Origin: Ulva prolifera
Lineage: Eukaryota > Chlorophyta > Ulvophyceae > Ulvales > Ulvaceae
Direction: 5' to 3'
Assembly: GCA_023078555.1 (NCBI GenBank)
Contig: CM041197.1
Location: 7,348,842 to 7,412,841, forward strand
Length of the DNA: 64,000 nucleotides
Shown: piece after piece, positions 8,314 through 50,700 of the stretch
Layout of the letters: each line of letters starts with the position of its first letter
Numbering within the stretch: the first letter of the stretch is position 1
Translations under genes and position numbers: made by a program
Notes under the pieces: model-generated
What the model was told of the DNA's origin: nothing
Seen by the model: the letters and a program-made list of their open reading frames with translations, nothing else
Database searches by the model: none

Positions 8314-10742
8314 CTACTCGTCCTCGTCCGAGAGGCCGTCAATTATGGAGTCTTGAACCTTCGATAACTCGTCCTGCATGCAATACCATCTGCATGAGTG
8401 CACGGCTCCGATGCATGCGTTGTCCGAGTGACTGTAACACAAATAGTGCTACTACCTGGGATTGCAGACATTGGTGTCACATGTCAAATCAACTGTATCG
8501 GGGTAGTGACATACCGTCAATACACTAATCTGTTGTATTAATTTCTGCACACTCGGACCCTTGCTTTTGGGCTGATGCATTGCCAGCTTAGCCTTGCAAT
8601 CCTCAATCTTTTTCCGAATATCGCTACGCGCTTGTAGGGCGGCCTCCTTGTCTGCCTTGGCCTTTCGCTTCTTGAGAGCTTTATTGGACTCTTCTGCAAC
8701 GTACATGCGCTTCTACACCTGGTCTGATTATGGGTGGGGCAATTACAATCGGACTAGGCACACATTGGCACAAATCATAAGAGGACATACCGGCGCCACG
8801 GCTTGTAAATCAATCTCCGGGGACTTCCATCGATTGTCTGCACGCTGGGGAGAATCAGGCTCTTCATCTTCCTCCGTCTGATCGTGACCAACCTCGTCCG
8901 GCTGGTGCTCACTGTCCTGAGCAGCAGTGCAGTCTGCCCTTGGTTCTCGCTGGAGGCCTGGCCGCCGGGGAGAAACGTCAGCGAGCATTGTGCGCCGTCC
9001 GCTGCTGGAATGAGTGCCCCGTCTTCCTGACTTGGATGCGGTAGGAGCCTGTACCCGCATGGCTGTCTCGAATCATGGTTCATGCCGGTCACACAGGCGC
9101 CCGTACAATCCTGGTACCACTTAATGGCCACCCTCAGGCGGGCAGTACAGCGTGTGGGGAGATTGTACCTTCCCGGTCTTCCTTGGTCGCTTGCCCCGTT
9201 GGACGGGAGAGTCAGCGGTCCCTTCGATGGCGCGCTGGCCTGCAACAACCTTAGCGATTCCTTCGCACACATACAGACCGTCCTCCATAGCCCATGCCTG
9301 GGGGGTTTTCATTGGTTCGTCAGCAATAGGGAGGCGGTCTCGTCTCACGGTGAACTGCGCACGAATCACGTTGGTTGGAATACAGTGGCCATTCGCCGAA
9401 TGGCCAGTCAGTGCCCATGCAAGTGCCGATTCATGCAGGCCGCGCCGCGCTGGAGTGGCCATTCGCCAAATGGCCACTCCAGGCGCGTGCAGTGCGAGAC
9501 AATGCATGACGCGCTGGAGTGTCCATTCGCCGAATGGCCACTCCAGGCGAGTGCAGTGCAAGACAATGCATGACGCGTTGGAGTGGCCAGTCGCCGAATG
9601 GCCACTCCAGGCGCGTGCAGTGCAAGACAATGCATGACGCGATGGAGTGGCCATTCGGCGAATGCTGCTTTGACCAAGGAGGAGGACATGCCTTGGAGTT
9701 CTGGAACACTTGCATCGCCGCTGCAAGCTTCCTCTGCTCACGAGAGTCGGGATTCCTCCGCAGCGCAATGTTATGGTCCCACGCCCGCTTCGCATACTTC
9801 CTGCACATCGGGTCACCTCCGTCTGGGCGGATACTGTATGCTTCCCTTCTCCGCCACCGTTGGGTACGGCAACAGGTACGGCATAACCCGAGCATCAGCA
9901 GAGGCACACTCTTTGGTCGTGGCGTTCAAATGGCGGTGCTGGCTGTAGAAAGCATGATTGATATTAGTCGCAACTTCGTACGCTTCACCTGTTTTGCCAA
10001 CCTGTACACGATACCCGTATCGGCATTCTGACCGCGAATGGCGATGGTGATGTGCCGCAAGAAACTACACCGAAAGTTGGTGGCATGCGATCCCGTGGCC
10101 CTCGCGGGGTGGTAGTGGACCTCAGGATGTAAACACGTTGTTAGTCGGAGACAGCAGCCGTACCCCATATGCAGTTTTGCCGAGTGCGTCCGTCTGCGTT
10201 TTCGTTAGAATACTCCCTACCCACACCTTCTCGTCGGCTGGGGCGTTCAGGTTCACTAGTGCCTGCACGAGCTTGCCTTCCTTGTGGGCAGCGGCCATCC
10301 CCTTCACCTTGGATCTCATCCCTGCCGTCCACATCAGCACCGCATCCTTCATCGTTTCCCAACGCACGTCAGCTTCGGGGTCCGCAGTCAAGGCCGTAGC
10401 TGTTCAGTGTGCAGTGCCAACGGCTGCCGACGCTTGCCCCACGCTCCCTTTGCCCTTGCCCAGCGCCTTCACCAGCACGGGCGGCTTCAGCAGTCCAGCG
10501 ATTGTGCCTTTCCTGAAGAAGTACTTTACGCACGTCATCAGTTTCTCGACACTGTCGACATCAACGGAGCTGGCTTTGTCGACGGTTGACGTCAAAGTCA
10601 ACCCGTCGACGCCGGCACCCCTGCTCCACACGTTGCTGACCAGCACGTCAAGCATCCCTGCTCCGTTGTCTGCATCATCTACAACTTCTTTCTCGATGAT
10701 GACGGGCGAGGCGCGGAGGAACGTGAACTGCAGGTTGGACAT
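8314..10742 (-). pseudogene. Gene D of element A: coiled-coil, candidate TNPA-like protein, with internal stop
   Basis: Colinear with gene D of B (47711-50885). Exons on the minus strand: 10742-10164, about 10055-9985, about 9890-9760 (YAKRAWDHN motif), 9354-9169 (WAMEDGLYV), about 9055-8804 (Arg-rich then acidic), about 8682-8520 (Lys/Glu coiled coil, ALKKRKAKADKEAAL), and 8373-8314 (ends DGLSDEDE). Exon 1 has an in-frame TGA at 10404-10406 where B reads through, so this copy is probably dead. The intron between the YAKRAW and WAMEDG exons holds the palindromic array at 9384-9665. Function is unknown. Size, basic region, C-terminal coil and divergent position beside the transposase resemble TNPA of En/Spm only in general outline. 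Confidence 0.7.
9384..9665. repeat. Palindromic array P1, left array of element A (five units of about 64 bp)
   Basis: Each unit has a long near-perfect palindrome whose arms are GAGTGGCCATTCG and CGAATGGCCACTC, followed by a spacer with AATGCATG. Five palindromes begin near 9385, 9453, 9518, 9582 and 9644; the first and last are partly decayed. The array lies inside the intron of gene D between the YAKRAW and WAMEDG exons, the same intron that holds a different palindrome array in element B. Confidence 0.85.
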
Positions 10743-11078
10743 GGTGGAGGAGTAGACAAAGCGGAATTAACACACGTATACAGTCGGTATTGTGGATGGT
10801 CTTTTCGTATGACAGCTAACAGATCGCGTCGTTCGCACATGCTTTGCTGCTCCGTGCTTTGAATGGTATGCCGATGTAGCGTCGTCGCGCGGTCTGCCTT
10901 CAAAGGTTTGGCTGCCTCGATACCCCGGTGCCTCGCCAGATATCGTGGCGACAGGGCGAACACGGTATACGACAGGGAGGTCTTTGTGATGTTTAATGCC
11001 ATCGTAGGAACGGTAAACACCAGAGGCCGCGCTGTCGTATAACTTCGTCACAAGTATGCTCAACTACAGCTGGCTACG
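10743..11078. promoter_or_regulatory. Bidirectional intergenic region between D and T of element A
   Basis: These 336 bp separate the divergent starts of D and T, as 47236-47710 does in B. No TATA box or clear repeat was recognised. Promoter function is inferred from gene orientation only. Confidence 0.4.
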
Positions 11079-11533
11079 ATGGCCGAGTCTAGACTGAAGA
11101 AGTATGAGGTGAACGACGTGATTGCCAAAGCGAACTGTAAGCGCCTGGTCCCTCCTGAGCCGACGGGGAAGGAACCGTTGAAATACCAGTGTCTAGCCTA
11201 TGGTGAGAAGTTTGCCCGGCACACCACCGCCCAAAACCATTACGATCCCTGCAGCAAGTTACGGAGTGCAGCAGCCGCAGCGCGGAGAGCCGCTGGTGGA
11301 CACGACGACGCGGGCCCATTCTCGAGGCCAGCCACTGGCCCGACCTCCGCTGCTGCCGATGATGACGTCATCGGCATACACGACGGGGCCGGTCCCTCTG
11401 GGAGACCACCATCCCCTCCAGACATGTGGGGTCCCCCCAATGACCCTGCCCACTCCGACGACCTCTTCGACGTGCGTACCTGCGGTAGTTGACCGTGCTG
11501 AGTCCCGGATTGCCTGATCATGATGCAGATCGG

Positions 11534-14121
11534 CACTACAAAGATGGTAGGCACACATGAATGTACACTTTGAATGCTCGTTGTGGTGAGTCGTGCAATC
11601 ATGTACATTTTGAAGACTGTTTGGATACATTTCAGTATATTCGGGAAATGTAAAAGTAGATTGTACATTAGATGCTCTCTCCAAGTGCACATGGCACGTA
11701 CATCCTTGGTACCTGATGGGGTCACGGAATGTACATTGCACGACCGCGCTTCCACGCTCCCATGTAATGTAAACTCTCTCGGCTGCGATGTGTACCGGTC
11801 GAGTGCTTTTTCGCCCCTCAGCCACAACCGCGCGATTTGCACTTCAACACGCGTCCACGCTCCGCCAGAGTGTACATGCTGGATGTACCTCTCGAGCACA
11901 TTCTGATGGAGTACGATTAACGCGCTGAGACATGGTCCCGTCTTGTCGGTATGCCTGTGTATGCCGTGGTTGGAGCTCGTCCAATCTGTGTGCTGCATGT
12001 CGGGAAATCCGACTCCATACATAAATGAGATACTATCATCCAAAAGTCTTGTACAATATGAACACTGTGTTGAATCAAGATGCTTTAACAGCTTGAACAT
12101 ATGGTGTACATTCTCAGACGTTGCAAGTAGTTCCGCGGCAGTTTCACAAACACGGAACGCAGGAATTAGTCAATCTCGCTGTCAATGTTTGACAATCTAC
12201 ATTCGGAATCCGTACGCTGCTGGAGAGGACCATGTAGCTGTCAAGCCAGTGCAGTTTACAGCGCATGCCGCTCTCAACAGGCGCACATCATGGACCCACT
12301 GAGACGATCCACAGTTCCACAATGTCAAAATGACAACCAGGTTGAAAGGTAAATTATAATCAATAGTAATGCCTAGCTGCGTTTTGTTGCTGACTGCAGC
12401 CATCGCTGGTCGACGTTGTGCTCAGGTTGTTGCTTCATTACCGTTTCATTCGCGGGTATGAAGCTCGCTACTGCTTGTTGCGACTGTAGCGCACGAAACA
12501 CGAGGAGCTTGACTGATTCAATGGGTTCTTGAAGCTGGTTCGCGGCACCTGCTGGTTTGACCGTTAACATTGACCACCAGTGTCCGCTGAACGTCGGGAG
12601 AAGACGCCATAATAACAAAATATGAAACCAGCACTCTGTAGAATGTCTGCAGTGATCATGTCCGGTGCGGTGACCATGTCATCACGTCGAATGGATGTGA
12701 GCATGTCGTGTCGGTTGTCGACGTGCGACCGCAGTCAGTTAGAAACATTATGCTGTATGGGCTGTAGCTAACATCAAGCAAGTGTACGATGATTTCCGAC
12801 AGTGCAAAGCGTAAGGCAGGTATTGTATTAGCATGCAATTGGACTTTCCGTCCCGGTCAGACTTGCGAGTAGTGCTCAGCTCCATGCGCATTTCAGTCCA
12901 AGCCGTCCACGTTTGTCTGAGCAAGTCTTGATATGTTCCTAGGAGTTGTCTATATTTGGTCGGGCGTAGCCTTTTCTTCCATTGCTGCATGGTCGCGAGC
13001 TCTCTTGCAGTGTTGTGTATGCTCAGTGCAACGTACCTACGCAGCTTGCCTGACCATGCCGCGTTCCGGTTTGTTCCGTTTGCGGTCGAATCGTGTGTCT
13101 TCATGGGCAAGGCTGCCGTGAGGTTCGTCGGTCAGTTGGGGGATGTGGCCGCTGCCAGTGGGCGCATCTCCAAAGGCGCGTTTGTCCAGTGGGCGCTGCG
13201 GGTGTTGTCGGTGTCATTGCAGCGCGGCAATGCGGATATGTATCGGAAGTCTGGGCTTGTCATCTCTCGGGAGCAAGGGTTGCAATATGATGCGGGCCTG
13301 GAGGACGCGATCCTGCCGGACTGATTTGTGAGTGCGGTTGTAGTGTTCGTGTGTGTGTGAGTGTATGTTGCAGTTGATTCGGATGAGATTCGGTTTCAGT
13401 GTTTGTTTTCTCCCGTTCACTCTTTTGTAAAAACCTACGCAGCTTATCATACACACTGCTCAGGCCGCTCCATGTATATGCGCTGCAGTTCATACGACAT
13501 CGAGTAATCTTTGTTGTGCCGAACATGTTTGGGCGGGGCAGTACGGGGTTTATCTCTAGATACTACAGCGTTGTGATTGGCCTGTACAGGTATGTACAGA
13601 AACTTGCAAACCACATGCTCCCGCCAGATATGTGGCCTGTCATAATGTACATCTTCGCTATGATATAGTGTGCCTCTGCAGTACACGAACACATATGCAA
13701 CAGTACACTATCCCGCAATTTGAAGCGTACACGAGCGCAAGAACTGTATAGATAATGCATCGATGATGCAAAGATTTTACCAAGTGTACACGATCTGACA
13801 ACTCGTGTACTCGACGTGTACGAGTCGGCGTTCCCTTGTGTACCGGCAAACAGTACAGTTTGCTCGCCCGCGTAGACACTCCGCGTACATTTCACCTGGG
13901 AGTGTACATTGCTGCTCACGGGCGATCAGGCCTGGCGGCAGCAAAAGGTACATTTCCTATCCTATACTGCACCAATAAAGCCGCAGAACGTACCTTTCAC
14001 ATGCACGAGTGCAAATGCCAGCAGACATTCGGTCTACATTAGCATGCCATTTGTGTTGCTGTTCCAAGGCAGAATCCCGCTCGAAAGTGTACATTCCTGC
14101 GTGCCTACCATCTTTGTAGTG
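11534..14121. mobile_element. Element D: non-autonomous CACTA transposon of a second family
   Basis: Ends are CACTACAAAGATGGTAGGCA at 11534 and its inverted partner finishing CTTTGTAGTG at 14121. The target duplication is CGG at 11531-11533 and 14122-14124. The terminal zones, about 600 bp on the left and 450 bp on the right, are packed with GTACATT/TGTACA motifs in both orientations. This is the subterminal-repeat arrangement that binds TNPA in En/Spm. No transposase gene is present. A LINE fragment at 13048-13432 landed inside it. It sits in intron 1 of gene T of element A, about 60 bp after the exon 1 donor. Confidence 0.9.
13048..13432 (+). mobile_element. 5'-truncated LINE-1 copy with 13-bp target duplication
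   Basis: Flanked by ACCTACGCAGCTT at 13035-13047 and 13433-13445. It is 82 bp longer at its 5' end than the copy at 1906-2208 and otherwise nearly identical. The open frame runs from the insertion start (PFAVESCVFMGKAAV) through GRISKGAFVQWALR to the stop at 13322-13324, and the 3' end is CACTCTTTTGTAAAA. The high identity of two differently truncated copies suggests recent activity of the source element. It is nested in element D, which is nested in element A. Confidence 0.85.
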
Positions 14122-16029
14122 CGGCATGACAGCGGCTCGTGATGGGCATGGGTGTCAGGGCTCCTGTCCCTTTGCTGTATCCTGCCTGCTCGCCCAAAGC
14201 AACTCTGATGTGTTGGGATTGTGTACAGCTGCCCCCACCGTCCGAAAGTGACTATGCCGAGGGCCTCGCACAATTTTCAGACGCCGACTCAGACACCTCA
14301 GACGCAGAGTCCATTGCCTTCTCCTCAGAGACGGACTACAGTTCAGACGAATCCGAGGTGTGTCCTCATCTTCCATTACATGCAATGCTGTGAATCCGCT
14401 CGTACTCCTCCGTGGGACTGGCCGGATCGTTGCACATGCAGGAGGCGGATGACGACGGCCCGCTCCCCACCACAGGGGCCCGGAAGGGCACGGGCGCCTG
14501 GTGGCATGACCAACGCATGAAACACATATACACTGGCAGCGCCCTCACCGTCCTCACGGTGTGCATGTGGATTGCCCAGTTGAAGAGCCTCTTTCGCATA
14601 CAAGACGTGGTCGTCGATACGTGGTGCAGGTTCATACCTTACCTCCTCCTACCCGATGGCAACTTTTTCCCCCCCTCCTTTCACCTCGTCAAGGCGGTGT
14701 TGGGTGTCCCGCCTGTTTCCTCTGTGACGCGCCACGTTTGTCCCCAATGCTGGAACTTGTTCCCCCCACTTGATCCGGGTGACCATCACCAGCATCTGGC
14801 GGACACCTGCGGAACCCCTGGTTGTTGTCATCAGCGATTCGATGTCGATCTCACAGGGAAGGGTGTCCCAGTGCGCTCAGCTTTCTTCTTTGGCGAAGAA
14901 GCCTCGCTGAAAGACCTCCTCCTGCAGCCGGGGCTGCTTTCGAGCGTACGGGAAGCCAGGGCAACATCTGTCAAAGACAAAAGCAGCTTCCTCAACTCCC
15001 CGGCTGGAAAGGCCCTCAACTTGGCGTGTGGGGGAAAAATCCTCAAGCCAAAGCATCGGGAGCTTGTCCTGCTGTTCAGCCTCGGTGCGCTCCATCTCCA
15101 CAACTGAGTAGGTGGCTATCAGGCACACCGAAAAGGCACGCATATGCCACTCCGCGAATTGAGACCCACAGCCACGTGTCCCGACAGTCGCGTCTCCTGC
15201 AGGGGGGGACGGGGCCCAGCTGTATGTCAACAAGCAGCATGGGGTCACCATCTGGGGGATCCGCCTGCTTGACCTGCCGCCCCATCTCTCAAGTACCAAT
15301 GTGGCCTGGATTCCCCTTGGAGTGGTGGAGAGGCCATCCGAACCGACGTGCATGGCCAGCATTCTGGAGTCCGTGATGGCGTTCTTCAAGAAGCATGATC
15401 CGGGCGCGCACTCACCTTGCCTGCCTCATCACTGCCGGGTGATGTGTACAGTTCCCGACCCCGTAGTGTCTGTCCCCGCCATCATGGGATGGCTTCAATG
15501 CAGGAGCTGGCGGAGAGGCACTCGAAATCACACTGCCTGGGGGCGAGGTACTGCACGTGTGGCCGGTGCTGTGCTGTGTGGAGGGGGATATCCCATGGCT
15601 GGAGAAACTTACCAACAGCATCGGCCACACAGCGAAGAGGGCATGTTTCAGATGTGCCCAAAACGGCGTGTGGCATTACCCCGCCAACACGGTCAGGTCC
15701 GTGGTGGTCACTTCCGTGTGTAAACACTTTCCTGCTAGTGCTGCCCCACGTACCTGTCCCGCTTACAATTGCTATCATGCATGCCACGGCGATGCAGGTG
15801 GATGGGACACCACCTCCCTCTGCATCAGCCCCTGCCCTGCTATGCCGACGGGCCTCTGAAAGGGACATCACTCCCCCCGCACTAGGAGAATGGCGACATT
15901 GCGAGACGGATCCGGATATCGTCCGACAGATTCCGAAAGCCCGTTACCTCTCCGTCACCTCTCCACAGCTTTCCGATGTCATCGGATGCGAGGTGCCGGA
16001 AGTGCTGAGGACTTTGAATGATTGGAATC

Positions 16030-17084
16030 CGCTCAACGGAAGGTAATTAGTTAACGCCACAAAACACAACGAGCACGTTCCGCCAACACGAACTTGGACA
16101 AGCTACCCAAGCACGACACTTGAGCACCGCGATGCTCTGCCTGCCCTACTGAACATAGATCGTGGTCGACACGCAATTACTTTGATGATCAACTTGCAAG
16201 TGACTCGTAGCTATGGCAGGCAAGACACAGTGTGAGGCTTTGCATCTGCATGTGGACACCCAGGCGCCCGGCTCGACAGAAGAGGCATCCGCAGTAACGT
16301 GCGAGGCTTGGCATAATCATTGGTCACTCTGTATACAAGTCTGCTTCGCGACGCCATGGCCATGGTGGCGGGGATCACTCACGCGCGGGAGAACATGTAC
16401 AGGCGTGAGCAGCGCACAAGGACACGCTTGGACGGCCTGGTCATGATAAAAAAGCAGGTAGTCCTGTAACATCCATGTGATCCAGACTCGGCCCCTTGTT
16501 CAGTGAGCCTGCACGGATGGCGCCCCATCAGAGGAACAACTGTTGTCGAGCGGGTAATGGCTGATGACTCGTCGACAGTTTAGCTTCAGGATAGCCGAGA
16601 GGGAAACAGAAACACCAATATAGTCTGCGAGTGTAGCTGAGGACTCAGTGAGCACAGGGAGGCCGCATCACCAAGCTCGTCCAGGTAGCGCTGTACGTAC
16701 ACTGTCTGGTATCAGCTGGAATTCTTGGACACAATTGCAAACCCCAATGGACATTACGTAGTCTTTTGAAATTGCAGCAGCAACAAGCAGCTGCTCTATG
16801 TAGATGCGGCTGGTTGTGGTCTCAGTAGGCCCGACTGATGCAAGGGGCATGCAGCCCCGTACCATCGAGGTGGGCGGTGTCAATGCCCCAGTGGATGTTG
16901 CTATAACCATGGATGTGATTACGTCGTCATTGCCACGCACAATGCCCTGGACACACATGTGCACATCGACCAGGCGGCTGATGCGTGTAGCATCATCATC
17001 ACCCCCACTGCAATGCGCGAGGGGGCAGAGGGCACAACACACAAACACCCGATGCCAATTTCAATCTGCTGCGGCTGTGATGGG
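16030..17084. other. Non-coding interior of element C, left part
   Basis: Only short unrelated open frames are present. No homologue in element A or B genes, no repeat structure and no structural RNA were recognised here. Confidence 0.5.
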
Positions 17085-18170
17085 CAGCATCACTTCCACC
17101 CCGTCAGAGGCTCTGCACCGCGTGCGGGGGCAGATGGCACAGCAGCACAGGAACACCAAGTGCCGCTGTGGCAGCTATGGATAGCGGCGCTGTCACCCCC
17201 TCTGCACCGCGTGCGGGGGCAGAGGCCACAACAGCACAGAAACGCTAAGTGCTGCTGCGCTGTGGCTGCGATGGATAGACTCGCTGTCACCCCCTCTGCA
17301 CCGCGTGTGGGGGCAGATGGTAGACTAGGACAGAAACACTAAGTGCCGCTGTGGCAGCTATGGATAGCAGCGCTGTCACCACGTCTGCACCGCGTGCGGG
17401 GGCAGAGCGGGGGCAGAGGCCACGACAGCACAGAAACACCAAGTACCGCTGTGGCTGCGATAGGCAGCATCACTGCCACCCCCTCTGCATTGCGTGAGGG
17501 AGCAGAGGCCACAACAGCACAGAGCACCAAGTGCTGCTGCGCTGTGGCTGCGATGGACAGACTCGCTGTCACCCCCTCTGCACCGTGTGCGGGGGCAGAT
17601 GGCAGACTAGGACAGAAACACTAAGTGCCGCTGTGGCAGCTATGGATAGCAGCGCTGTCACCACGTCTGCACCGCGTGCGGGGGCAGAGCGGGGGCAGAG
17701 GCCACGACAGCACAGAAACACCAAGTACCGCTGTGGCTGCGATAGGCAGCATCACTGCCACCCCCTCTGCACTGCGTGAGGGAGCAGAGGCCACAACAGC
17801 ACAGAACACCAAGTGCTGCTACGCTGTGGCTGCGATGGATAGACTCGCTGTCACCCCCTCTGCACCGCGTGTGGGGGCAGATGGCAGACTAGGACAGAAA
17901 CACTAAGTGCCGCTGTGGCAGCTATGGATAGCAGCGCTTGTCACCACGTCTGCACCGCGTGCGGGGGCAGAGCGGGGGCAGAGGCCACGACAGCACAGAA
18001 ACACCAAGTACCGCTGTGGCTGCGATAGGCAGCATCACTGCCACCCCCTCTGCATTGCGTGAGGGAGCAGAGGCCACAACAGCACAGAACACCAAGTGCT
18101 GCTGCGCTGTGGCTGCAATGGACAGCATCGCTGTCACCCCCTCTGCACCGCGGCCGGGGGTAGAGGACGC
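17085..18170. repeat. Minisatellite with about 70-bp subunits and 282-bp higher-order period
   Basis: Subunits carry CACCGCGTGCGGGGGCAGAG, a CACAGAAACACCAAGTGC-like block and GTGGCTGCGATGGATAG. Blocks of four subunits repeat with a 282-bp period (17343-17624, 17625-17906, then a third with a one-base offset). Because 282 is divisible by three, open frames run through the array, but the reading frames carry no other sign of coding. It lies inside element C. Confidence 0.85.
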
Positions 18171-18470
18171 GGTGTTGCTGACATCACAATGCATTGCCGA
18201 GCTATTACTGGTGTATTATGCAGCGACATAGCCACTGGCACACTTTACGCCTCTGCCAGCAGAGAGGGGGGAGGCCGCACCCTGCTCACCCGCACAAACA
18301 CGCATGCACGTCCATGGTGCACATCTGTACATGTACAGATGTTGCAACATCCCAGACAACGACAACCTGATCATGAGTGGCCAAAGACGATTTTGCCTGG
18401 CGGAGCGCCTCCTGACTTAAGGTGGCCGATACTCACAGAATGGCCTAGCTTCCTTTAAATTGAGAACGCG

Positions 18471-20070: not shown

Positions 20071-20074
20071 TTTG

Positions 20075-33267: not shown

Positions 33268-33356
33268 AATGTCCTATGGCTTCCTCGGTGGCCGCGGAAT
33301 GTCCTATGGCTTCCTTGGTTGCCGCGGAATGTCCTATGGCATCCTGGGCAACAGCG
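33268..33356 (+). repeat. Subterminal 30-bp repeats of element B
   Basis: Three tandem copies of a unit containing GCGGAATGTCCTATGGCTTC, 120-210 bp inside the left end. With the dispersed GTTCCG motifs of both ends they are candidate transposase-complex binding sites. Confidence 0.7.
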
Positions 33357-38648: not shown

Positions 38649-38680
<32 letters not shown>

Positions 38681-39299: not shown

Positions 39300-39597
39300 G
39301 CAGCCTGTACATTTGTTGGGGGTTCTTTGCAGTGTGGTGGGTGTGTTACCGTTGGGGTGCGAGGTGTCACATCACGGATCTGTAACCTGCAGTCCGTGTA
39401 TACCAATGCATTTACTGGCTCATATTGTCACGAGCTGATACATTTGTTCGCGTGAACCACACGTCCGCTGTTAGTATTACAATCAGCATTTGTCTCTAAT
39501 GTGTCAGTCGTATCTGCTAGAACCACATGCGCCTAGACAGCATCAGTCACCTACTGATCAACGCAGCTGCTGTACCCAACATGCGCATATTCTGCGC
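39300..39597. terminator. Convergent 3' region between genes C and U of element B
   Basis: 298 bp between the stop codons of C (plus) and U (minus). A TGTAAC at 39381-39386, about 80 bp after the stop of C, fits the TGTAA polyadenylation signal of green algae. No gene was seen. Confidence 0.4.
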
Positions 39598-42465
39598 TTA
39601 TCGCCTGAGGCGTGGCAATGACATTTGGAAGAGGGCTTTGTACTCGGCGTGCAGGACTTCCGCCGGCTTCTGAATACTGGGGACAATGTCTGGCCACAAT
39701 GTCGTCCTGAACCATTGCCTGCAGACAGATGCTCCCGCGTCAGAAGACATGCCAACTACTGACAGTCCCTGGACATGGACACGCGCAACGTACATGCCTT
39801 GCACTGTGTGAGGCAATTGGTGTCCGGAGCGGTACCGTAGTTCCTCTTCCGTGATGTCCGGGCAGATAGGCTCCTTCAGGTTCACATCCCACCTGGCATC
39901 AATTAAGATTCGTCGGGCCTCCTCTGAGCCTAGGCTACCTACGACATCGCCTGCACGCCCCTTATTCTCCCATTCCTGTAACAGTGTCCGTGCCATGAGG
40001 ACACGGTATATCACTACATGCTCCGCCTTCAACAGCTTCAGCCGGCTGACAGCCCCCCTCTCCACGGCGGACCCATCGCTGGTGGTCAATACTACCGCGT
40101 TCTGGCGACCCTGGTCACACTGTTTAATGGCGTCACCCACAGCCTCTGCCATCAGGCAGGTGAAGACCCCGCAGTCGAAGGTATTTTGCTGTTCAGGAAT
40201 ACCTTTAACCTGCACACTCCGCCTTTGATCAGAGGCCCCACTTGTGGCTGGCAGGACTCGTCCGCCACACTGTGATGCGGCGCAACTGACGGCTACAGCG
40301 AGGTGACACACAGATGAGACATACCACGCGTAAATTGAGGCGGTACTTCGGCTTCAACGGTGGCATGGCACCTTGTTTGGCTCCGCGCTTCGGCTGGAAT
40401 TTTTGCCGACCAGGTGTAGATAACCCCTCGGGCAGCTCAGTAAGGGGGGGTACCCCGGAAAGGCCCTGACACAGCGCCACACTCATCACGTCTGTGAGGG
40501 CAGTTGGTGCTGACGCCGACGCGTCGGCGAGGGAATCGAACCAGCTCATGGCCGGGCGCTTCCCTAGCAGCAAGATCCCTGCATGTAGGGGTGGTAAGAG
40601 TGTACACAGCGGCATTGTGTCACACGGCACAAATGGGGGAAGGGGGGGAAATTGGGGGGTTTGTGGGGGGGGTGTTCACATGCACAGTTAAGATTGCATA
40701 CGATGGTACTGGAAGTCGCACTTGGAGAAAACACCACTGCAAGTGCCCAGTGCTTCCCCGTTGGCACCGGGATGAGGAGACACCGCGAGTTTAGTGCGTC
40801 CGCCCTCTTCAGCCACTTGGCGAGGTGCATCAGCATTCTACGGGCCTCAGGGTCGCTGCTAGGGTCACGGGTGACCAGTCCTGCGATGTGGTCAGACGGG
40901 ACCGCAATGACCCCCGGCCCGGCTAGGACAGCCGCCTTCACTACCGCATACTGCACCGGGATGGAGCTGAACCACTCTGTCACCCAGAACTCCCGGAAGT
41001 GGTCGACAGCCACATGTACCGTCACTTTCGTGGCACCGAAATCTGCCAGGTGCACTTCAACACTGGGCACTCTAGTGCTGCCTGATGGACACTCCACGTC
41101 CACCACGTCGAGCTTCTGGCCGCGGAGGAGGTTCCCCGTGGGGGCCACGTGCGACATTTCAGCGGCCAGCCGCTTCAGCGGCCGGGCATCCGACCTCTCC
41201 GGAGCCCGGTTCATTGGCTGTCTCCCTCCCCCGCCCTCCGGTGGCAGCAAGCTCGCAGGGGACAAGAACCCCTTCCCCACAGCGGGTGGGTGAGCTGCGC
41301 CTTCCCTACCGTCTGGGGTGTCCACCTCCATCGGCCCAGCGGCACCGGCTAACTGGCCCGAAGCGGATGGGCGAGCTGGGCCTTCTCTACCGTCTGGGGT
41401 GTCCACCTCCATCGGCCCAGCGGCACCGGCTACCTGGCGCGGCGACGCCGGTGTGGGCCCAGGAGGGTCCTGGGCGGCTGCAGCCAGTACTGCGCCGCGG
41501 CTGAACCTCCTGGGCTGGGCAGGGTGCATCATTGCACGCCCAGAAGCAGCAGCCCCCTTTGCCTTGGGGGCCGCGCACGCCTGTCGATCCGGCAGAGCCG
41601 CTGGCGGTGTTGCCGCCACTGCACGTTCCGCTGCGTCATCGTCCCGGGGGCTGTCGGGGGCTGGTGCCAGGCGGGACGCCACCGTGGTCCCCACAGCGCT
41701 CTGGCCGCAGGATTCTGCCCTCTCGGGAGGGCCAGGCTCGGGGGCCTGCGGTGACCCAGATGGCATGACACCGCCATGCGGGGCCGACAGCTGTGCACCC
41801 TGGGGTTCGAGCTGCGGCGGCATTACTGGCGCCGTTAAGCGGGCCTCGAGGACCGCCGGTCTGGGCCACATCGGTGTGGCTTGTGGGGCGCTGGCCTGGA
41901 GCCTATCCCACCATGCTGCAATCGGCCGGCCACCGATGGTCAGCCGGAGGCGAAGCAGAAGCCCTGCCATGGTCTCGTCGGGGCCTTGGGTCGTGGCGAC
42001 GGACCTGTACATCGCGATGGCATGCACCCCGCACGGTGCTTCTGACTGGACGGCCCGCTGAAACGCGGCTTCTCGCATCGCGACCCATAGCAGCTTTAAA
42101 TGGTGCGTAGCAGCTAGGTATGGAGTACTTGCGCCCGCTACTTCGCGGGTTAGTACCCTTCCCATGGACGAGAAGCCTGCCAACATCCTGGACTCCGCCT
42201 TTTTATCGCCGGCAAGGATGGTATCTATCATAGCGACATCGTAAGCTGTCAGTACCCAGCCGGATTCCATCATGTCCACCGGAAAGCCGTGTGGCCTGTC
42301 CATGACCAGCGACGGGATGCGGTGCCCAGGAACCCAGTTTCCCTGTGACGCTACCTCCACGAATCTATAAAAAGTAGGCTCATATTGAGCTCTTCTATCT
42401 AATTCAGTGAGGTACGATTTCAGCGTTTGCACGGTGATCGTGCCAATGTTCAACGTTGAAGACAT
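39598..42465 (-). CDS. Gene U of element B: Ulp1/C48 SUMO-protease-like protein
   Basis: Four exons, 42465-40722, 40578-40325, 40209-39836 and 39718-39598, sum to 2493 bases (830 residues) with all phases agreeing; donors are GTGCGA, GTATGT and GTACCG. The start ATG at 42465 is chosen because homology with A begins just after it (YEPTFYRFVE); the open frame extends upstream into array P2 but that part has no counterpart. Domains: conserved N-terminal region of about 220 residues, a Pro/Ala-rich linker, then a protease domain. The triad is visible: His in TGKHWALAVVF, Asp in SWFDSL, and Gln and Cys in PEQQNTFDCGVF. Proteins of this fold remove SUMO or related modifiers in eukaryotic nuclei. 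Here it may process the transposase or host factors, which is inference. Ulp1-like domains are known passengers in some plant DNA transposons. Confidence 0.88.
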
Positions 42466-42679
42466 CGGAATGAATCGCGGGCCACGGGCTCGAACGACAA
42501 TGGGAGCTAATACTACACAAGCTGGAGCGAGACGCGTGGTGTACTGTAAAGGAGGTACATGGATACAGCGCGTGTGAGAAGCGCGTGTCCTTGAGAAGCC
42601 AGGCTGGCCTTGGCCAACTCCACATGACGTCACAGCATCGACGCTGTGCACGCGGGCATCCTGTAGACACTTGAGTAGT

Positions 42680-42832
42680 GCTGGGCACATGCATTGCTCG
42701 CATGCGGAATGGTTGGTGGGCCACCAACCATTCCACGGTGGCGCTGACTGGGCACATGCATTGCTCGCATGCGGAATGGTTGGTGGGCCACCAACCATTC
42801 CACGGTGGCGCTGACTGGGCACATGCATTCCG
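42680..42832. repeat. Palindromic array P2, middle array of element B (two units)
   Basis: Two copies of a perfect palindrome with arms GGAATGGTTGGTGG and CCACCAACCATTCC, each with a spacer containing GCACATGCATTGCTCGCATG. It lies just beyond the 3' end of gene T and about 215 bp upstream of gene U. Element A has no array in this position. Confidence 0.88.
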
Positions 42833-42863
42833 CATGGTGGCCGCCATATGGGGGATGACCTAC

Positions 42864-45800
42864 TTACACAGTACGCCCGGAGGCCTTATTCGCTGTCTGC
42901 CAGTACTGAACACCTCCTGCCGTCCGTTTCACCGGAACCAGCTGCCCGGCCATAGCATCAATGTTCACTACATACCGGCCAGTGTAAGCTGAGGAACGGT
43001 GATGCACGCCATCAACCCTGTAAAACTCGGGAGCGCGGTTCAGCTCCTCATCCGCCTCCCTGCATCCGGGTGTATAGGGTGTACTACACTCGTACACGTC
43101 TGTCACACCGAGGTACAGTACGCTGGCCTCTACAGTGCAGGTTCTACAGATATTCGACCCGTCTGCCGTGCTGAGCCTGGCACGGACTATGTATTGCAAG
43201 TCGCCGACATAGTACCGATCCTGGCCCCTATTCGTACCCTCTTCTACTACATGGTACTTCAGCAGGCACCATCGATTGTCGTTCTTACCCTGACCAGTGT
43301 GCTGCGCACAGGTCAGGACATCCCCTACCAAAGCCCGCCCTCGCAGGAATTTTCGCAGGTGCACCTCACAGAGCTGCCGCTCAGCAACAACCTCCCCAGC
43401 AACCGGCAGCCCAAGCGCCCGCATGATGGCCTCTCTCCTGCCGTAGCCCGCACCCAAGACCCGCTGGGTCGGCCACCCTGCATCCTGCAGGGCGTCCTGG
43501 TGGTAGAGCAGGTAAGGCAGCCCGGACAACTCACCGACCCCAGTGTACCCCAGCGGCATCACTTCTTTCTTCTCTTCGGCGTCGAGGTCCTTACCCGCCC
43601 CAAACACCCTGTCGTCATCACCGTCATCAGAGTCGGTGTCGCCCATGTGCACAGCGGCCCGGACCTTGCGCCGTTTTGACCGACGGTGTTTCTCTGAGGC
43701 CACGGCCTCTTGCAACGTGCGCATGGCCGCCTCTGCCGTCTCGCTGCTGTGAAGCAGCCTCATGCATGTGCGCCGCAGCAGCTCATCGTTGACATACACT
43801 TTCTCTGGTGATTTGGTGGAACGATATTTGATCAGCCGTTTAAGTAGCTGCACCATGCGTTCGATCCAGAACTCTAGACAAAAGAACGCAGGCCCACAGC
43901 ATCTCACCTGGTCCGGTAGGTGCCAGGCTGCAATATGAAGCTTGAAGGTGCAGATCACCTCCCCCCCAAAGAGATCTTCTGCCATCGCGCCGTACTTTAT
44001 CAATGCGTCTTGAGCTGCTTTGATCCGGGGTGCGGTATGCTGGAGCTCCTCGTACCGCAGGAAATACAGGGTGCCTGCCCGGAGGTGCGTCCACATCTCC
44101 TCGAACACCAGCCGAACATCCTCCTGGTCGGGCTCCCATTGGAGGTCGTGCAGCAAGTACAAGGAGAACGTCTCAGTGAACGCAAGCCAGTCCTCCATGA
44201 GCCACCGAGACCGGTGCCTGCAGCAGTGCAAACTTGAAGCGAGCCACCTGCTGGCCTCCACAAGATGTAAGGTTCACGACATTTGTGCATGGGACAGCTG
44301 CCAGCAGTAACCAGTGACCGTATTGTGGGGGGCCGCGGAACCGCACTTGGTGATGTCGGTGTACACTTTCTTGAACAGATAAGTGTGCATGATGTGGGAC
44401 GCGCGGGCAGCGATCTGGGCCACCACCTCTTTAGGCAGCTGATACAACCGCCTGGGGCCTGCAGGGCGGGCTTTCTTACGCCTCTTCGAACTCGGCAGCC
44501 ACTGATTCCAGAAGTCCATGAGGAGGCCAAGGAGGAACACGTGCGCGACACCGTAGCGGAAGAAGTGGCATGGACTGCAGAAACAACCTCCTTCACGGTG
44601 TATTCATGGGTCCAGATGACGGTATGGCAGCTGTCCTGAGGTAGGGGTGCGCACTTGAAGTATGAGAGGGTGCTGAACAGGGAAGACCCTTTAACCCCCA
44701 GGCGGATGTGCTCCTTCTTCGCAAGTTTCTGCCGTTCCAGCAGGGTGTCTTTGGCAGTGTAGCGGTCCAACGTGGGGCTGTTGGTCTGCATGCAAGGCTC
44801 CTGGTGGGCGTATTGGCAGAACATCGACCATGCATGCTGGCACATGGGCCGCAGGACAGAGGAAAGATTCATATACAAGGGTAGCCGCACCTGAGCGATC
44901 AACAAGTCTGCTGTGTGGCCGCGAGCGCACATCTCTGAAGCAGAGTACTTCAGCCGGCAGTCCTTTGCCAGGGTCGCCGGGTCGATGGTGGTAACCTCGG
45001 ACCACTTCGTGCGAGGGGGGGGGGCCCCGGGGTCTGGTTCCATACTGCCGGGCACCATCCTCGGCACCGCCCCCGCGGCAATCTCCGTCTCTTGCGCCGC
45101 TGTGAGGGGCTTTCCTTGATCAGGCCCCGCAGCGTGAACCGGCTGAGGCTGGATGACCGGGCCGTGGAACCCAAGCCAGCTGCACGGCGGATGATTGATA
45201 AGGACAGTAGTGAGCCCCACAGCCATGTCGGAGTGGGTGGCGGAGGCGGGCTTGGCAGGGATGCCAGGGGTAAGCAGGGGTGGTCAGAGGCAGCATGGCG
45301 ACGGCACGGCAACTGGAGCCATCATACCGAACTGTGTTGGCTGCGAACACCCAGACGCCGTTCTGGGCGCAACGGAAGCACGCCCTCTTGCCGCCGTGCC
45401 CGATGCTGTTGGTCAACTTCTGCATCCACGGAATGTCGCCCTCCACACAGCAGAGCACAGGCCAGATGCGCAGAACTGTTCCGTCAGGCATCTCGACTTT
45501 GAGAGCCTCGACCCCGTCCTCGCCCTTCCTGGCTGCATTGTAGGGGGCTTATAGTGAACACAGCGCACATTAAGCACTGGCCGGACATGAGTGTGCGGTG
45601 GGTACACACTCGCCAGACTGACACGTACCTGGGTCATGCTTCTTGAAGAACTCGAGGACCTGTGCAAGGATGCTGTCCATGTTCGTGGGTTCAGTTGGGC
45701 CCTCGACTACCCCCAGGGGGATCCAGGCCTCATTGCAATGAGACAGATGAGGGGGGAGGTCCAGCAGGCGGATGCCCCAGATTGTGGTCCCGTGTTGCTT

Positions 45801-47235
45801 GTTCACGTACAGTTGGGCGCCGTCACCCCCTGCAAGCGGACTTAGTGTCGGGGAGAGGCTGCTGCAGGCCCCACTGGACCCAGACGATATTGTGGGCCTG
45901 GCAACTGAGTGACGGGGACCCAGGATACGCCGAACTCAAGCCGAGCGCACCCAAGCTGAAAAGCAGTGCAATTTCGTCCGGGTCAGCCTTGGCGAAAATC
46001 CCGCCGCATGCGGCGTTCAGGGCACGTCCGGCAGGGGACTGCCAGAAACCGGCGGGATCCATTAGCGCGTGCACTCGATGAGCACGAACCGCGGCCAGGA
46101 CGCCAGGTTGCAGAATCAGGTCTTTCAGCGATGCGGCCTCCCCAAAGTAGAAGACACTCCGGCAAGGTGCACCCTTGCCTGCCAGGTCCACCTCGAAACG
46201 CTTCTGGGTGCACCCTGGGGTGTTGCAGACATCGTCCAAGTGGTGGGTATGATCACACGGCTTTATACCTGGGAAGAGAGTCCAGCACTGTGGGCACACG
46301 TGCCGGGTCACTGAAGAGACATCTGGTACAGCCAGGACAGCCTTGACCAGGTGGAAGGATGGGGGGAACATATTCCCATCTGGTAAGAGTAGGTAATGCA
46401 CAAAACGACACCACATGTCCACCACAACATCACTCATCCGGAACATGCTCTTCAGGCTGGCGATCCACATTGATACAGTCAACACTGTGAGACGGCAGGT
46501 GTCGGAGACCGGATCCATCCGTCTCTGACGCCACCATGCGGCAGTCCCCTTCACGGCTGCAGCCTCAGCTGCGACCTGTGGACCCTCGCGGCCATCGAGG
46601 GAGTCGCTCTGCACATATTCACCAGCCATTTACACCGACAGGGAGCAGGGGGTGGGTGCCCAGCACAAGAGCAAATCGGATAATCAGGCTGCGTCGGGAG
46701 ACACCGAAAGGACAAACCTCCGTAGAGGCTGTGTCCCAGTCATCTCCTGACAGGCTGGAGAAGACACTGCTGGCGTCGTCGTATAGGCTGTCCACATCGT
46801 CGTCTCCGTAGTCTTCTTCGGATACGTCGGAGCCCTCAGGGACCTGGCCACATGACACCAATCACGATCACCAGGTAGTCAGCACTCGAGAGCAGACGAG
46901 GTGATCAGGGACAGGCGCACCTCGAAGAGGACCTCGTCGACTCGACCGAGGTCGACAACGCCGGGAGGCTGGTTGCCCGCCACTGGCTGGTTGCCTGTGT
47001 CATCTCCCGTGCCCTCGTCACGAGTCTGAGCGCGCCCCACGGCTTGTCCCCCGGGGCAGTCGCGGGGGTGATTCTGGGCAGTCAGAAGCCTGTCAAACGG
47101 TTTACTACATTTAGTGCACTTGTATAGCAGCTTTTTGTCCCCATCATGAAGTGGAGGATCAAGGCGCAGCACGCCAACGAGTGCAAGGTCGTCGTCGACA
47201 GCACGCTTGGCGGTGCGAGGCCTACGCGGAGCCAT
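42864..47235 (-). CDS. Gene T of element B: Tnp2-family CACTA transposase
   Basis: Nine exons, 47235-46921, 46843-46718, 46608-45951, 45829-45629, 45532-45328, 45179-44891, 44800-44655, 44574-44347 and 44217-42864, encode about 1173 residues with every phase agreeing and no stop. Exon 1 has a zinc finger (YKCTKCSKPF then NHPRDC), exon 2 is acidic, and exon 3 has a second Cys/His cluster (VCPQCWTLF, CDHTHHLDDVC, PGC). The Tnp2 DDE-type core shows GDGAQLYVNKQHG (first Asp), VEGDIPWMQKL with the GHGGKRACFRC pair, and GVAHVFLLGLLMDFWNQWL. The last exon has the DUF4218-like HLPDQVRCCGPAFF and FWIERMVQLLKRLIKY. The enzyme should cut at the CACTA ends and integrate with 3-bp duplications. The stop overlaps TGTAA, as in A. 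It is divergent from gene D across 475 bp. Confidence 0.93.
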
Positions 47236-47710
47236 TATCTACACATTAAAGGTCGATGAACTCTGCCTGGATGAATGGAAAGACGTCGCCGTAAGCGAGC
47301 GGCGTGGTACGAACGAGGCTCAGGCGTAGTGAAAGCGTCCTCGGGGACGAGTGGAGTGGCGGGACGCTTACAAAAGAGTGAACAAGAGATATCAAACACT
47401 GAAACCGAATCTCATCCGAATCAATTGCAACATAAACTCACACACACACACGAACACGACAACCGCACTCACCACTCAGTCAGGCAGGATCGCGTGGAGT
47501 GGCGGGGGGATCCTCGTGCGGTGGGGATGTAACGAGGGAGTGTCCCTGTGGCCAATGGCCGGGCACCAACACGGGCCTGTGTTTTCAAAATCTTGGATAC
47601 CAGCATTGACGGATAGGCCTTCCCAAGTACCAAAGACGTTGGAGTTACTGTAAACGCATCGGCTGCGGAGTGTCTGTCGAGTTCCGGTCCTCTCTAGTGT
47701 GTACGTCGCG
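47236..47710. promoter_or_regulatory. Bidirectional promoter region between T and D of element B, with LINE tail
   Basis: This interval separates the divergent starts of T and D. About 130 bp of it are a LINE-1 3' tail (47364-47493). The rest, including GAGTGGAGTGGCGGG, has no recognised core-promoter motif. The role follows from gene orientation. Confidence 0.5.
47364..47493 (-). mobile_element. Severely truncated LINE-1 tail with 13-bp target duplication
   Basis: Flanked by GTGGAGTGGCGGG at 47351-47363 and 47494-47506. It holds only the 3' region of the LINE in reverse orientation: TTACAAAAGAGTGAAC, the CCGAATCTCATCCGAATCAA block and the CACACACACACGAACAC stretch. It landed in the shared upstream region of T and D, so it may affect expression of both. 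Confidence 0.8.
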
Positions 47711-50700
47711 ATGCCGGACAACCTTGAGTTTCAGTTCAAGCGAGCAGCCGCGATCTTGATAGACAAAGACACTGCGGACGACGATTCGGATAATGGGATG
47801 CTGGATGTGCTAGCGAGGAGTGTCTGGCGAAGGGGAGGGGGGTCGGACGGCATGACACTGGCGTCGGCCAACGACGAGGAGGCCACCTTGGACGTCGACA
47901 ACGTGGAGTCCCTCAAGAGATGTATAACTTTCTACTTCAAGAAGGGGAGGATCGCCGGCGGCATCGAGCCCCCGGTGCTGGTGCTGCCCATCAATCCACG
48001 GAAGAATCGAGGCTCCGCTCCAGGTGCGTCGGCACACACAGCGGCCTCCACTGCTACCGCTGCGACGGGCGACAGCGATCAAGTGTGGGAGGTACTACAG
48101 TCGGGAGTGCTGCTGTGGACTGACAAGTTGTCGGCGATCCTGGGCCAGATGAGGGACGAGGACAAGGCGTCCCCGCTCATGAAGGCGCTGCTGAAGGACG
48201 ACGGCGACCCAAAGCTGCGAATGTACGAAGGTTGTATGCTGATGCATCAGCACGTTGGCGCGATCACTGCGGCAGCAGCTGGGGTACGCTTTTGCAAGCC
48301 TGCTAACAAAATGAACCTGTTTCGCCGGGCTGAGTTGCTGGGGCGGTTGCCATACGGTAATGTGAAGATTACGGTAGATTGCGATGAACTCGTGTTGTCA
48401 TGTATGGCTGAGCATGTAGAGTGATTGACCCAGTTGTTGTTTTCGTGCTGGAAGTGGTCGCCGCGGACCGTGCGCCGCGGGAGGCAATGTCCACCGCAGT
48501 ACATCGATGATGACCAGAATTGATTGACTTGTGCAGCCGGGCAAAAAGGGGACGGCGTACACGGCTGCGAGGAACATAGCAAAAGCGTTTCGGGGCCAGA
48601 CAAGCATGATGAGGGAACTGAAGTACAAGTGCGTTCCCTCTTGAGCATGCGACATCACGATCTTGACAGGATGCTCACGTTCGGCCATAATCAGCGGCCC
48701 TCCTGTGTTCGTGTAAGCACACACGCCCAGTCCTGACCAAGCCGACTCCTGCAGCGGTTTCGCTAAACGAGCATTTGATCACAACAAAAAGATGCGGCAG
48801 AGCGAGCGAGCCCGCGAGGACCCGAAAGTGACCTCGGCAGTGACGGGCGTAGAAGAGGAACAGGCGCGTGCTCCCTTCTCCCGGATCATGACATGCATGA
48901 CTTGCCCGAATGGTCGGTGGCCCACCAACCATTCGGGGCGCGTGGATAGTGACATGACATGCATGACTTGCCCGAATGGTCGGTGGCCCACCAACCATTC
49001 GGGGCGCGTGGATAGTGACATGACATGCATGACTTGCCCGAATGGTCGGTGGCCCACCAACCATTCGGGGCGCGTGGATAGTGACATGACATGCATGACT
49101 TGCCCGAATGGTCGGTGGCCCACCAACCATTCGGGGCGCGTGGATAGTGACATGACATGCATGACTTGCCCAAATGGTCGGTGGGCCACCAACCATTCGG
49201 GGCGCCTGGATCGTGATATGACATGCATGACTTGCCCGAATGGTCGGTGGGCCACCAACCATTCGGGGCGCGTGGATAGTGACATGACATGCACGACTTG
49301 CCCGAATGGTCGGTGGCCCACCAACCATTCGGGGCGCGTTGATAGTGACATGACATGCATGACTTGCCCGAATGGTCGGTGGGCCACCAACCATTCGGGG
49401 CGCCTGGATCGTGACATGACATGCATGACTTGCCCGAATGGTCGGTGGGCCACCAACCATTCGGGGCGCGTGGATAGTGACATGACATGCCTGACTTGCC
49501 CGAATGGTCGGTGGCCCACCAACCATTCGGGGCGCGTTGATAGTGACACGACATGCATGACTTGCCCGAATGGTCGGTGGGCCACCAACCATTCGGGGCG
49601 CGTTGATAGTGACATGACATGCATGCCTGCCCGAATGGTTGGTGGCCCGCCGACCATTCGGGCTGACATGCATGTCACTCGTGCGCTCGTGCGCCGCGCC
49701 TAACTTACCGTTGCAGACCCATATGATGTGGACGGTGTGCTACTGCGAACACATTAAGCAACCGCATACTAGTGCGCGTGACAAGCGCAAGCCACTGACA
49801 CATCACCTATCCATGCAGCTGTCCAGAATCGGAACCAGGCTTGCTTACGGCGATGGCACGATGAAGTCAGCCGCGCAGTGGGCACGAGAAGAAGGAGTGT
49901 ACGTGGCTGACAACCACTACTTCAGGGATTTCATACAGGGCAATCTAAAAAGGGAACAGACAGCGGAATCTCCGTTGCGTCCCACCCACCGGAAGAGCCA
50001 GAAGGGTGGCCGGGTACGTGTTCGCGGCCATGCTGTACATGAGGCAGGGACATGAATGCGATGCCAGTCGTAGAAGTCGCGCCGACACAGAATCGCGACG
50101 TGCCTTGCTACGCAGGCCGAGACCAGCAACGGCGGGAGACGCGCCCGCAAGAGAGGCAGCGACAGGTCAATCGCCGATCTCCCTCCTTCACCTCCGATCC
50201 TTACCCGAACACGGAAGGATTCGACTCCCACTGACAGTGACGACCAAGCATTTGAGGAGTTACCCCACACAATGGAAGTTGCGGACGACGAGATGCCCCA
50301 GGCCAAGGCTCGGAGAAGCGACGCAGCAGAAATGGACATACAGGAGGATGAACCGGTGCGCCTCTATTTGTACATATCTCCATATGGTTGACATAAACTG
50401 TGCTTGCATAAGTCCAAGCTCGTGTACGTGCGTTCGTGATGATGTAGTGAGCTTGATGAGGCGCATCAATGGTATGTATCGTATACATGCTGGTCATGTT
50501 TCAGTAGGTGCGAGAGATCTTGTGACAGCAACGTTGTTCTGCAGAAGGCCAAGAAGAAGGACACGCATCCGGCTCTGGAGAAACGACAGGCAGACGCCGA
50601 CCTCGAATCTCTCCGGAATGCATGCAAGGTTCTCAATCAGAGAATAGCCGAGTCTCAGGATGAATTAGCGAAGCTGGCATCCGGCCCCGCCCGCACGCGG

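What the first reader, a model, noticed from the sequence alone, without database searches (positions are those of the whole stretch)
9384..49680. Palindrome arrays whose core follows the terminal repeat of the element that carries them
All arrays in A and C-element use a palindrome built on GAATGGCCAC; all three arrays in B use one built on GAATGGTYGGTG. The terminal repeats differ at the same base: CACTAGRAGAATGGC in A and C-element, CACTAGGAGAATGGT in B. The right end of A continues GAATGGCGACACTCTG, close to array units GAATGGCCACTCTGG. Array spacers differ even within one element, apart from a recurring ATGCAT, so the conserved part is the palindrome. This looks like internal arrays of inverted binding sites co-evolving with an element-encoded protein.
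Basis: partly seen in the sequence, partly recalled or inferred. Interest (0 to 1): 0.88.

Follow-up and report, generated by a model that had tools for sequence, protein, structure and literature searches.

The report
Transposon palindrome arrays match element ends

Summary
The window holds three nested CACTA-like transposons with 3-bp target duplications. Two end in CACTAGRAGAATGGC and carry only GAATGGCCAC palindromes; the third ends in CACTAGGAGAATGGT and carries only GAATGGTYGGTG palindromes. In the 88.9-Mb genome, 251 such ends split 120 T / 131 C, no other base. In 28 elements read here (14 C, 14 T), 200 C half-sites lie in C elements and 357 T half-sites in T elements, none in the wrong family. 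Palindromes with another base are nearly absent (7 sites against 1208). Both are 27-bp dyads (12-3-12); 229 of 278 have ATGCAT 4-14 bp away. Arrays sit about 0.5-1.8 kb from the 3' end and 1.1-3.3 kb from the 5' end. Two short copies share little with full-length ones beyond ends and arrays, so the arrays are most likely cis-acting binding sites, like TNPA sites of En/Spm. That the array 'follows' the terminal repeat rests on one evolutionary contrast and a shared 7-mer (2-3% by chance per family), with a partial parallel in Chenopodium CACTA elements. A variant of a known kind, not a new system.

The parts
7495..52056 (+). Outer C-type (GGC) CACTA-like element, interrupted by the inner element and by B; TSD CGG
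   Evidence: Ends and TSD; main aligned pieces 88-92% identical to a 17.6-kb copy after leaving out the two insertions
15880..21930 (-). Inner C-type short element, 6051 bp, TSD CCG; shares only its two ends and the 5' array with full-length C
33145..51826 (-). B: T-type (GGT) element, 18682 bp, 5' end at 51826, TSD CTC
9383..9664 (.). 5' array of the outer element: C dyads, 64/70-bp steps (last unit partial)
32574..32804 (.). 3' array of the outer element: 3 C dyads, 102-bp steps
20079..20628 (.). 5' array of the inner element: 8 C dyads, 69/70-bp steps
33653..34539 (.). 3' array of B: 11 T dyads, 59-92-bp steps
42707..42800 (.). Middle array of B: 2 T dyads between the transposase gene and the gene 2 region
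48908..49659 (.). 5' array of B: 12 T dyads, 65/66-bp steps, in an intron-like gap of gene c
42867..47238 (-). B transposase gene (several exons): N-terminal Cys/His finger-like stretch; C-terminal exon 42867-44219 with sub-threshold DUF4218
   Evidence: exon boundaries inferred
47711..50814 (+). B gene c (antisense to the transposase; several exons, contains the 5' array); no known domain
   Evidence: exon joins inferred
39601..42828 (-). B gene 2 region, with a weak Ulp1-type C48 protease match at its C-terminal part
34840..39167 (+). B gene 3 region (antisense, starts just inside the 3' array); no known domain

Best explanation
The arrays are subterminal cis-acting sites of CACTA-like transposons. 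Shown: two families (C and T) each carry tandem arrays (or, at some 3' ends, a single copy) of a 27-bp dyad near both ends in 17 of 18 full or paired copies; the arms are conserved between arrays while most flanks are not; arrays persist beside the ends in short derivatives. Inferred: a protein encoded by the element (a TNPA-like product of gene c or gene 3, or the zinc-finger-like N-terminus of the transposase) binds each dyad as a pair, many dyads load many molecules, and the loaded arrays bring the two ends together, and perhaps regulate the genes beside them, before the transposase cuts at CACTA. The GAATGGY just inside the terminal repeat is probably a related half-site contacted by the same or a cognate protein. 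A C-to-T or T-to-C shift in specificity then changed both places and split the family into two systems in one genome. ATGCAT beside the dyads is probably a second, shared factor's site.
For: 28 of 28 elements carry only the array type of their own ends (200 C and 357 T half-sites, 0 in the wrong family). 251 ends: 120 GGT, 131 GGC. Other-base dyads: 6 and 1 against 828 and 380; 4 of the 6 are GAATGGATGGTG, 3 of these 1.2 kb inside T ends, the fourth (C35) not checked. The first 50 C dyads listed lie within 3.5 kb inside a C end; of the first 59 T dyads 34 lie so inside a T end and 13 beside a damaged T end (L045); 0 of either near an end of the other type. Arms 97.5% (C) and 95.8% (T) identical between arrays, flanks 52% and 56% against 42-43% shuffled. 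Inner element (6051 bp) shares with a 17.6-kb copy only bases 1-432, the 5' array and the last 137; L048 shares the first 912, the 5' array with about 330 bp beside it, bits of the 3' array region and the last 319; L049, a plain internal deletion, keeps 721 bp of the 5' end and the last 2.7 kb with the 3' array; L050 (2.7 kb read) has the T 5' array. 34 of 44 arrays have at least one step that is not a multiple of 3, so they do not look like coding repeats. ATGCAT 4-14 bp from 229 of 278 dyads, 9.7 per kb near dyads against 0.55 elsewhere. Shared 7-mer with the TIR: reached by 428 (T) and 536 (C) of 20000 shuffled half-sites.
Against: No binding data. The family association is one evolutionary contrast, not 28 independent ones. 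Within T arrays the echoed base (position 7) is among the more variable: T in 74 of 86 half-sites, A in 9. L045 has a damaged end (GTTG for GGTG) but intact T arrays. The C and T arms differ at 5 of 12 positions, of which one is echoed in the TIR. L011, a full-size C copy, lacks the 5' array; the inner element lacks a 3' array and L049 the 5' array, so neither array alone is indispensable. L049 also keeps part of gene 3, and L048 a piece of gene c, so they are less clean than the inner element. Two array pairs have similar flanks (84% and 75%). Ten T dyads at C1:2838831-2839924 are unexplained. No DNA-binding protein was named.
Confidence: 0.68

Rival explanations
1. Co-inheritance only: arrays and ends are binding sites for different proteins (as TNPA and TNPD in En/Spm), and the shared GAATGGY and its matching base are coincidence fixed by descent in two clades.
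For: Only two states and one switch are seen. A 7-mer match arises in 2-3% of shuffles, and given an array change the same base in the TIR is perhaps a 15-20% event (rough estimate, not computed). The echoed base varies within T arrays. In En/Spm the two sites are assigned to different proteins (PMC2613891, passages seen). In two of the four Chenopodium pairs the longest shared word is no longer than chance.
Against: The matching 7-mer occurs in both families and the changed base agrees; in the C dyad GAATGGC is the least variable stretch (62-64 of 64 half-sites at each of seven positions). In the four Chenopodium CACTA elements the TIR tail matches the own motif at 9, 8, 9, 7 of 9 positions against 6, 7, 6, 5 for the other motif group (from PMC8978399).
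Confidence: 0.4
2. The arrays are transcriptional control elements (enhancer, silencer or insulator) of the element's genes rather than transposition sites.
For: The 5' array lies in an intron-like gap of gene c, the 3' array just upstream of gene 3, the middle array of B between two genes. ATGCAT resembles the CATGCA site of plant B3 factors (recalled).
Against: The inner element, which shows no gene similarity to full-length copies, still carries an array beside its end; L048 likewise, apart from a gene c fragment. Dual use, as for TNPA in Spm, is possible.
Confidence: 0.2
3. The arrays are neutral satellites born by tandem duplication and spread with the elements.
For: Copy number and step length vary between copies; the inner element holds another, unrelated tandem array at 17111-18166.
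Against: Arms are conserved between arrays with mostly unrelated flanks, in 5', 3' and middle positions, and between C and C2 copies whose longer aligned pieces elsewhere are about 67-77% identical.
Confidence: 0.06

Closest known systems
En/Spm of maize with TNPA and its subterminal sites (PMC2613891, passages seen; details partly recalled)
   Same: CACTA ends, 3-bp target duplication, many short repeated sites near both ends, needed in cis and kept in defective copies
   Different: Here sites are 27-bp dyads in tandem arrays 0.5-3 kb from the ends; the TIR shares the core of the array; no TNPA homologue was found
Tgmt* and Tgm1 CACTA families of soybean (PMC2613891, passages seen)
   Same: Subterminal repeats form palindromes; two families in one genome have different motifs
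   Different: There 4 repeats within 159 bp and 24 within 732 bp of the ends; no link between motif and TIR is made in the passages seen
Jozin CACTA elements of Chenopodium (PMC8978399, section 6 and passages seen)
   Same: The tail of the TIR resembles the subterminal motif and differs with it, imperfectly, between species (not remarked on in the parts I read)
   Different: 12-bp motifs in direct and inverted order near the ends; between species rather than two families in one genome
Hermes (hAT) with BED domains on quasi-palindromic subterminal repeats (PMC10368747, passages seen)
   Same: Works-like comparison: zinc-finger domains of the transposase bind an inverted pair of subterminal sites
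   Different: Different superfamily; the sites lie within 27 bp of the end, not in arrays

Membership tests
CACTA (EnSpm) superfamily | Termini CACTA...TAGTG | tested here: met
   251 ends CACTAGRAGAATGG in the genome; both ends in all three window elements
CACTA (EnSpm) superfamily | 3-bp target site duplication | tested here: met
   Identical triplets in 9 of 10 full C elements, 8 of 8 T elements, 3 of 3 window elements, L048 and L049: 22 of 23; L013 reads CAG/CCC
CACTA (EnSpm) superfamily | TNPD-type transposase (Transposase_21, DUF4218) | tested here: inconclusive
   DUF4218 is the only Pfam family hit in the C-terminal exon of T, C and C2 but below cut-off (E 0.0033, 0.052, 0.02). Transposase_21 gave one weak hit in the genome (E 0.03), not at a listed element, and none in the exons scanned. 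All searches were exon by exon
CACTA (EnSpm) superfamily | Repeated short motifs in direct and inverted orientation near both ends | tested here: met
   Dyads at both ends of 8 of 8 T end pairs and of 9 of 10 full C elements, two of these with a single dyad at the 3' end; L011 has a 3' array only. Farther from the ends than in the plant cases read
En/Spm-type system with TNPA | Second element protein that binds the subterminal motif | not testable with these tools
   Genes c and 3 are candidates by position; no domain found, homologues without names; model of gene c exon 1 has mean pLDDT 34.6
CACTA (EnSpm) superfamily | Cut-and-paste mobility in trans of copies without the transposase | not tested
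   Indirect only: short copies with clean TSDs

The most novel reading that the evidence does not exclude
One element-encoded DNA-binding specificity (GARTGGY) reads both the terminal repeat and kilobase-distant dyad arrays; a single change of specificity rewrote ends and hundreds of array sites together, creating two mutually blind transposition systems that live nested in each other in one genome, with a shared ATGCAT-binding factor at the dyads.
Probability: 0.25. Interest if true: 0.65.

Novelty: new variant of a known kind. Interest (0 to 1): 0.42.

Why it matters
How a CACTA transposon tells its own ends from those of close relatives is, to my knowledge, not settled. Here two related families (120 and 131 exact ends) share a genome, their sites differ in a defined way, and natural short copies point to the minimal cis parts, so the recognition code and its switch can be tested directly. 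It also adds a case of palindromic subterminal arrays from outside the flowering plants, if the host is the green alga that I suspect (not shown).

Tried and rejected
Other collections: no relative of the transposase in viral contigs or genome contigs and no exact terminal motif in viral contigs, so no independent lineage could be added; named or annotated relatives were not found among proteins either. Ends of other families: CACTAGNAGAAV gave 30 hits against 130 for the reversed control. Arrays as coding repeats: rejected on step lengths (34 of 44 arrays with a step not divisible by 3), although arrays are open in some frames and 10 of 44 arrays have only steps divisible by 3. Structure model of gene c exon 1: mean pLDDT 34.6, so no fold search was run. 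A 9-base likeness of one C 3' end to the recalled TNPA motif was dropped because that stretch varies between C copies. Index slip for L045, corrected. Paper searches whose listings held nothing on these elements. On re-checking, the novel reading was lowered from 0.27 to 0.25 because of the variable position 7 in T arrays.
Full report
What is there. The window lies at G000:C2:7348842-7412841 of an unnamed 88.9-Mb genome in 44 contigs. Size and intron-like gaps point to a eukaryote; I suspect a green alga, but the organism was not identified. Three nested elements are delimited by ends and identical 3-bp flanks: outer 7495-52056 (CGG), inner 15880-21930 (CCG) and B 33145-51826 (CTC). Outer is in + orientation, inner and B in - orientation.

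Ends. CACTAGRAGAATGG occurs 251 times in the genome: 120 with T next and 131 with C next, so none with A or G. Among the 186 ends on contigs C1-C6 listed, adjacent +/- ends less than 30 kb apart are of the same type in 62 pairs and of different type in 2. Beyond about 18-20 bp the 5' and 3' ends differ from each other. The T 5' end is very uniform: 59 exact 24-mers, 3 with one mismatch, 1 with two; of 20 rows with three mismatches 14 are C-type ends listed.

Arrays. Both dyads are 27 bp, 12-3-12. T: GAATGGTYGGTG-NNN-CACCRACCATTC, 828 sites in the genome. C: GAGTGGCCATTC-NNN-GAATGGCCACTC; its inner 21 bp occur 380 times. Outer GARTGG cores have the same places in both, 21 bp apart centre to centre, two helical turns. 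C has an additional inner pair facing outward, and there the heptamer GAATGGC is the least variable stretch (62-64 of 64 half-sites at each position, from 32 distinct dyads). In T, from 43 distinct dyads, position 7 is T in 74 of 86 half-sites and A in 9, so the base echoed in the TIR is not the best kept one. Converging palindromes with a base other than T at position 7: 6 sites, of which 4 are GAATGGATGGTG (three of these 1.2 kb inside T ends; the one on C35 not checked) and 2 look like chance. Diverging palindromes with a base other than C: 1.

Family association. I read an end and an array in 28 elements: 14 C (ten full copies, the window's outer and inner, L046/L047, L049) and 14 T (eight end pairs, B, L048, L050, L002/L003, L004/L005, L045). 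C half-sites: 200 in C elements, 0 in T; T half-sites: 357 in T elements, 0 in C. Of these, L045 has a T-type end with two mismatches, and L004/L005 and L050 show an array at one end only. L001 and L006 (T ends with 1.5 kb inside) were left out because no array was in reach, and L007/L008 are the same copy as L009/L010. On contig C1, all 50 of the first listed C dyads lie within 3.5 kb inside a C end. Of the first 59 T dyads, 34 lie within 3.5 kb inside a T end, 13 beside the damaged T end of L045, 2 are a middle array 9.4 kb in, and 10 lie 11.3-12.4 kb inside a T 5' end without a matching right end and remain unexplained. None of either type lies within 3.5 kb inside an end of the other type. 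Dyads elsewhere in the genome were counted but not placed.

Not 28 independent cases. The transposase exon falls mainly into lineages T (93-100% to B), two of about 58-60% with frames of 467 and 455 residues, and C (about 610 residues, 57-58%); 91 of 291 candidates were scored. All non-T lineages read here end in GGC with C dyads. So the contrast is one event, and common descent alone would give the perfect association. The functional reading leans on other facts: the 7-mer shared between TIR and dyad in each family (428 and 536 of 20000 shuffled half-sites reach it), agreement of the changed base, conservation of arms, and what short copies keep.

Arms and flanks. Between arrays of the same type, arms are 97.5% (C, five arrays) and 95.8% (T, five arrays) identical, while 30-bp flanks are 52% and 56% identical, against 42-43% for shuffled flanks (T figures). 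Two pairs have clearly related flanks: C and C2 5' arrays (84%) and the 3' and middle arrays of B (75%). ATGCAT lies 4-14 bp from the dyad in 229 of 278 dyads and has a density of 9.7 per kb near dyads against 0.55 per kb elsewhere. Units within an array are copies of one another, so these counts overstate independence; each of the ten arrays compared carries ATGCAT within 15 bp of the dyad shown.

Positions. In the copies read, arrays start or end between about 0.5 and 1.8 kb from the 3' end (L017 is the far case) and between about 1.1 and 3.3 kb from the 5' end, apart from the middle array of B.

Short copies. The inner element (6051 bp) shares with a 17.6-kb C copy only its first 432 bp, the 5' array and its last 137 bp. 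L048 (T, 6027 bp) shares the first 912 bp, the 5' array with about 330 bp beside it (a gene c region), pieces of the 3' array region and the last 319 bp (pieces over 60 bp). L049 (C, 3431 bp) is a plain internal deletion with the 3' array, part of gene 3 and no 5' array. L050 (T, 8.4-kb class, 2.7 kb read) has at least 20 dyads starting 1.3 kb inside its end. So ends plus at least one array are kept in these; neither array alone is always kept, and the full-size copy L011 lacks the 5' array. Four short copies are a small sample.

Genes. Comparing T, C and C2 gives one layout, 5' to 3': gene c antisense (with the 5' array in a gap between conserved exons), transposase sense, gene 2 sense (Ulp1-type protease match just under the cut-off), gene 3 antisense beginning just inside the 3' array. 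34 of 44 arrays have at least one step not divisible by 3, and a CTAAC...CAG acceptor-like stretch follows the B 5' array, so I take the 5' array as intronic (inference, no transcripts). The transposase N-terminus has a C-x2-C...H...C stretch in T and C with only weak zinc-finger matches.

Known systems. PMC2613891 (passages): TNPA recognises subterminal repeats of Spm/En; soybean Tgmt* repeats form palindromes; soybean has two families with different motifs. PMC8978399 (section 6 and passages): four Jozin TIR and motif pairs; my comparison shows TIR tails at 9, 8, 9, 7 of 9 identical to the own motif and 6, 7, 6, 5 to the other motif group, but the longest shared word beats chance in only two of four (6, 1056, 0 and 2952 of 5000 shuffles). 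PMC10368747 (passages): Hermes BED domains bind quasi-palindromic subterminal repeats. PMC8195511 (passages): a 3.9-kb non-autonomous CACTA copy in lettuce with intact ends moves. PMC4219821 (passages): binding to subterminal repeats is proposed for soybean TgmR*. Searches for CACTA with Ulva, green alga or Chlamydomonas, and for subterminal palindromes with co-evolution, listed no description of these elements; apart from the papers named above only listings were seen.

Verdict. A real and strikingly regular feature; most likely cis-acting sites of CACTA-like transposons, with a terminal repeat that carries a related half-site. Co-evolution is plausible and has a partial parallel in print, but is one contrast here.

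Noticed in passing
G000 places: Several further CACTA-like families (DUF4218 below cut-off, open frames of about 231 to 570 residues) share this genome; no sign of ends of the form CACTAGNAGAAV above chance.
   Followed up: partly
G000:C1:2838831-2839924: A T array 11.3-12.4 kb inside a T 5' end (2827563) with no matching right end found: expanded middle array, nested fragment or rearrangement.
   Followed up: partly
window 17111-18166: Tandem repeat with 89-93-bp and 282-bp periods in the middle of the inner element, unrelated to the palindromes.
   Followed up: no
window 37574-38462: 123-bp tandem repeat, 7.2 copies, 98% alike, within the gene 3 region of B.
   Followed up: no
window 13300-13430 (approximate): A stretch of about 128 bp, 90% identical to T element sequence, inside the C-type outer element.
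   Followed up: no
window 39601-40311: Ulp1-type cysteine protease match just under the Pfam cut-off in gene 2 of B.
   Followed up: partly
L013 ends: Of the ten full C copies, the only one whose flanking triplets differ (CAG/CCC).
   Followed up: no
L011: Full-size C copy without the 5' array; between its first 0.7 kb and about 7.5 kb no long match to L009 was printed, so its 5' half may have been replaced.
   Followed up: no
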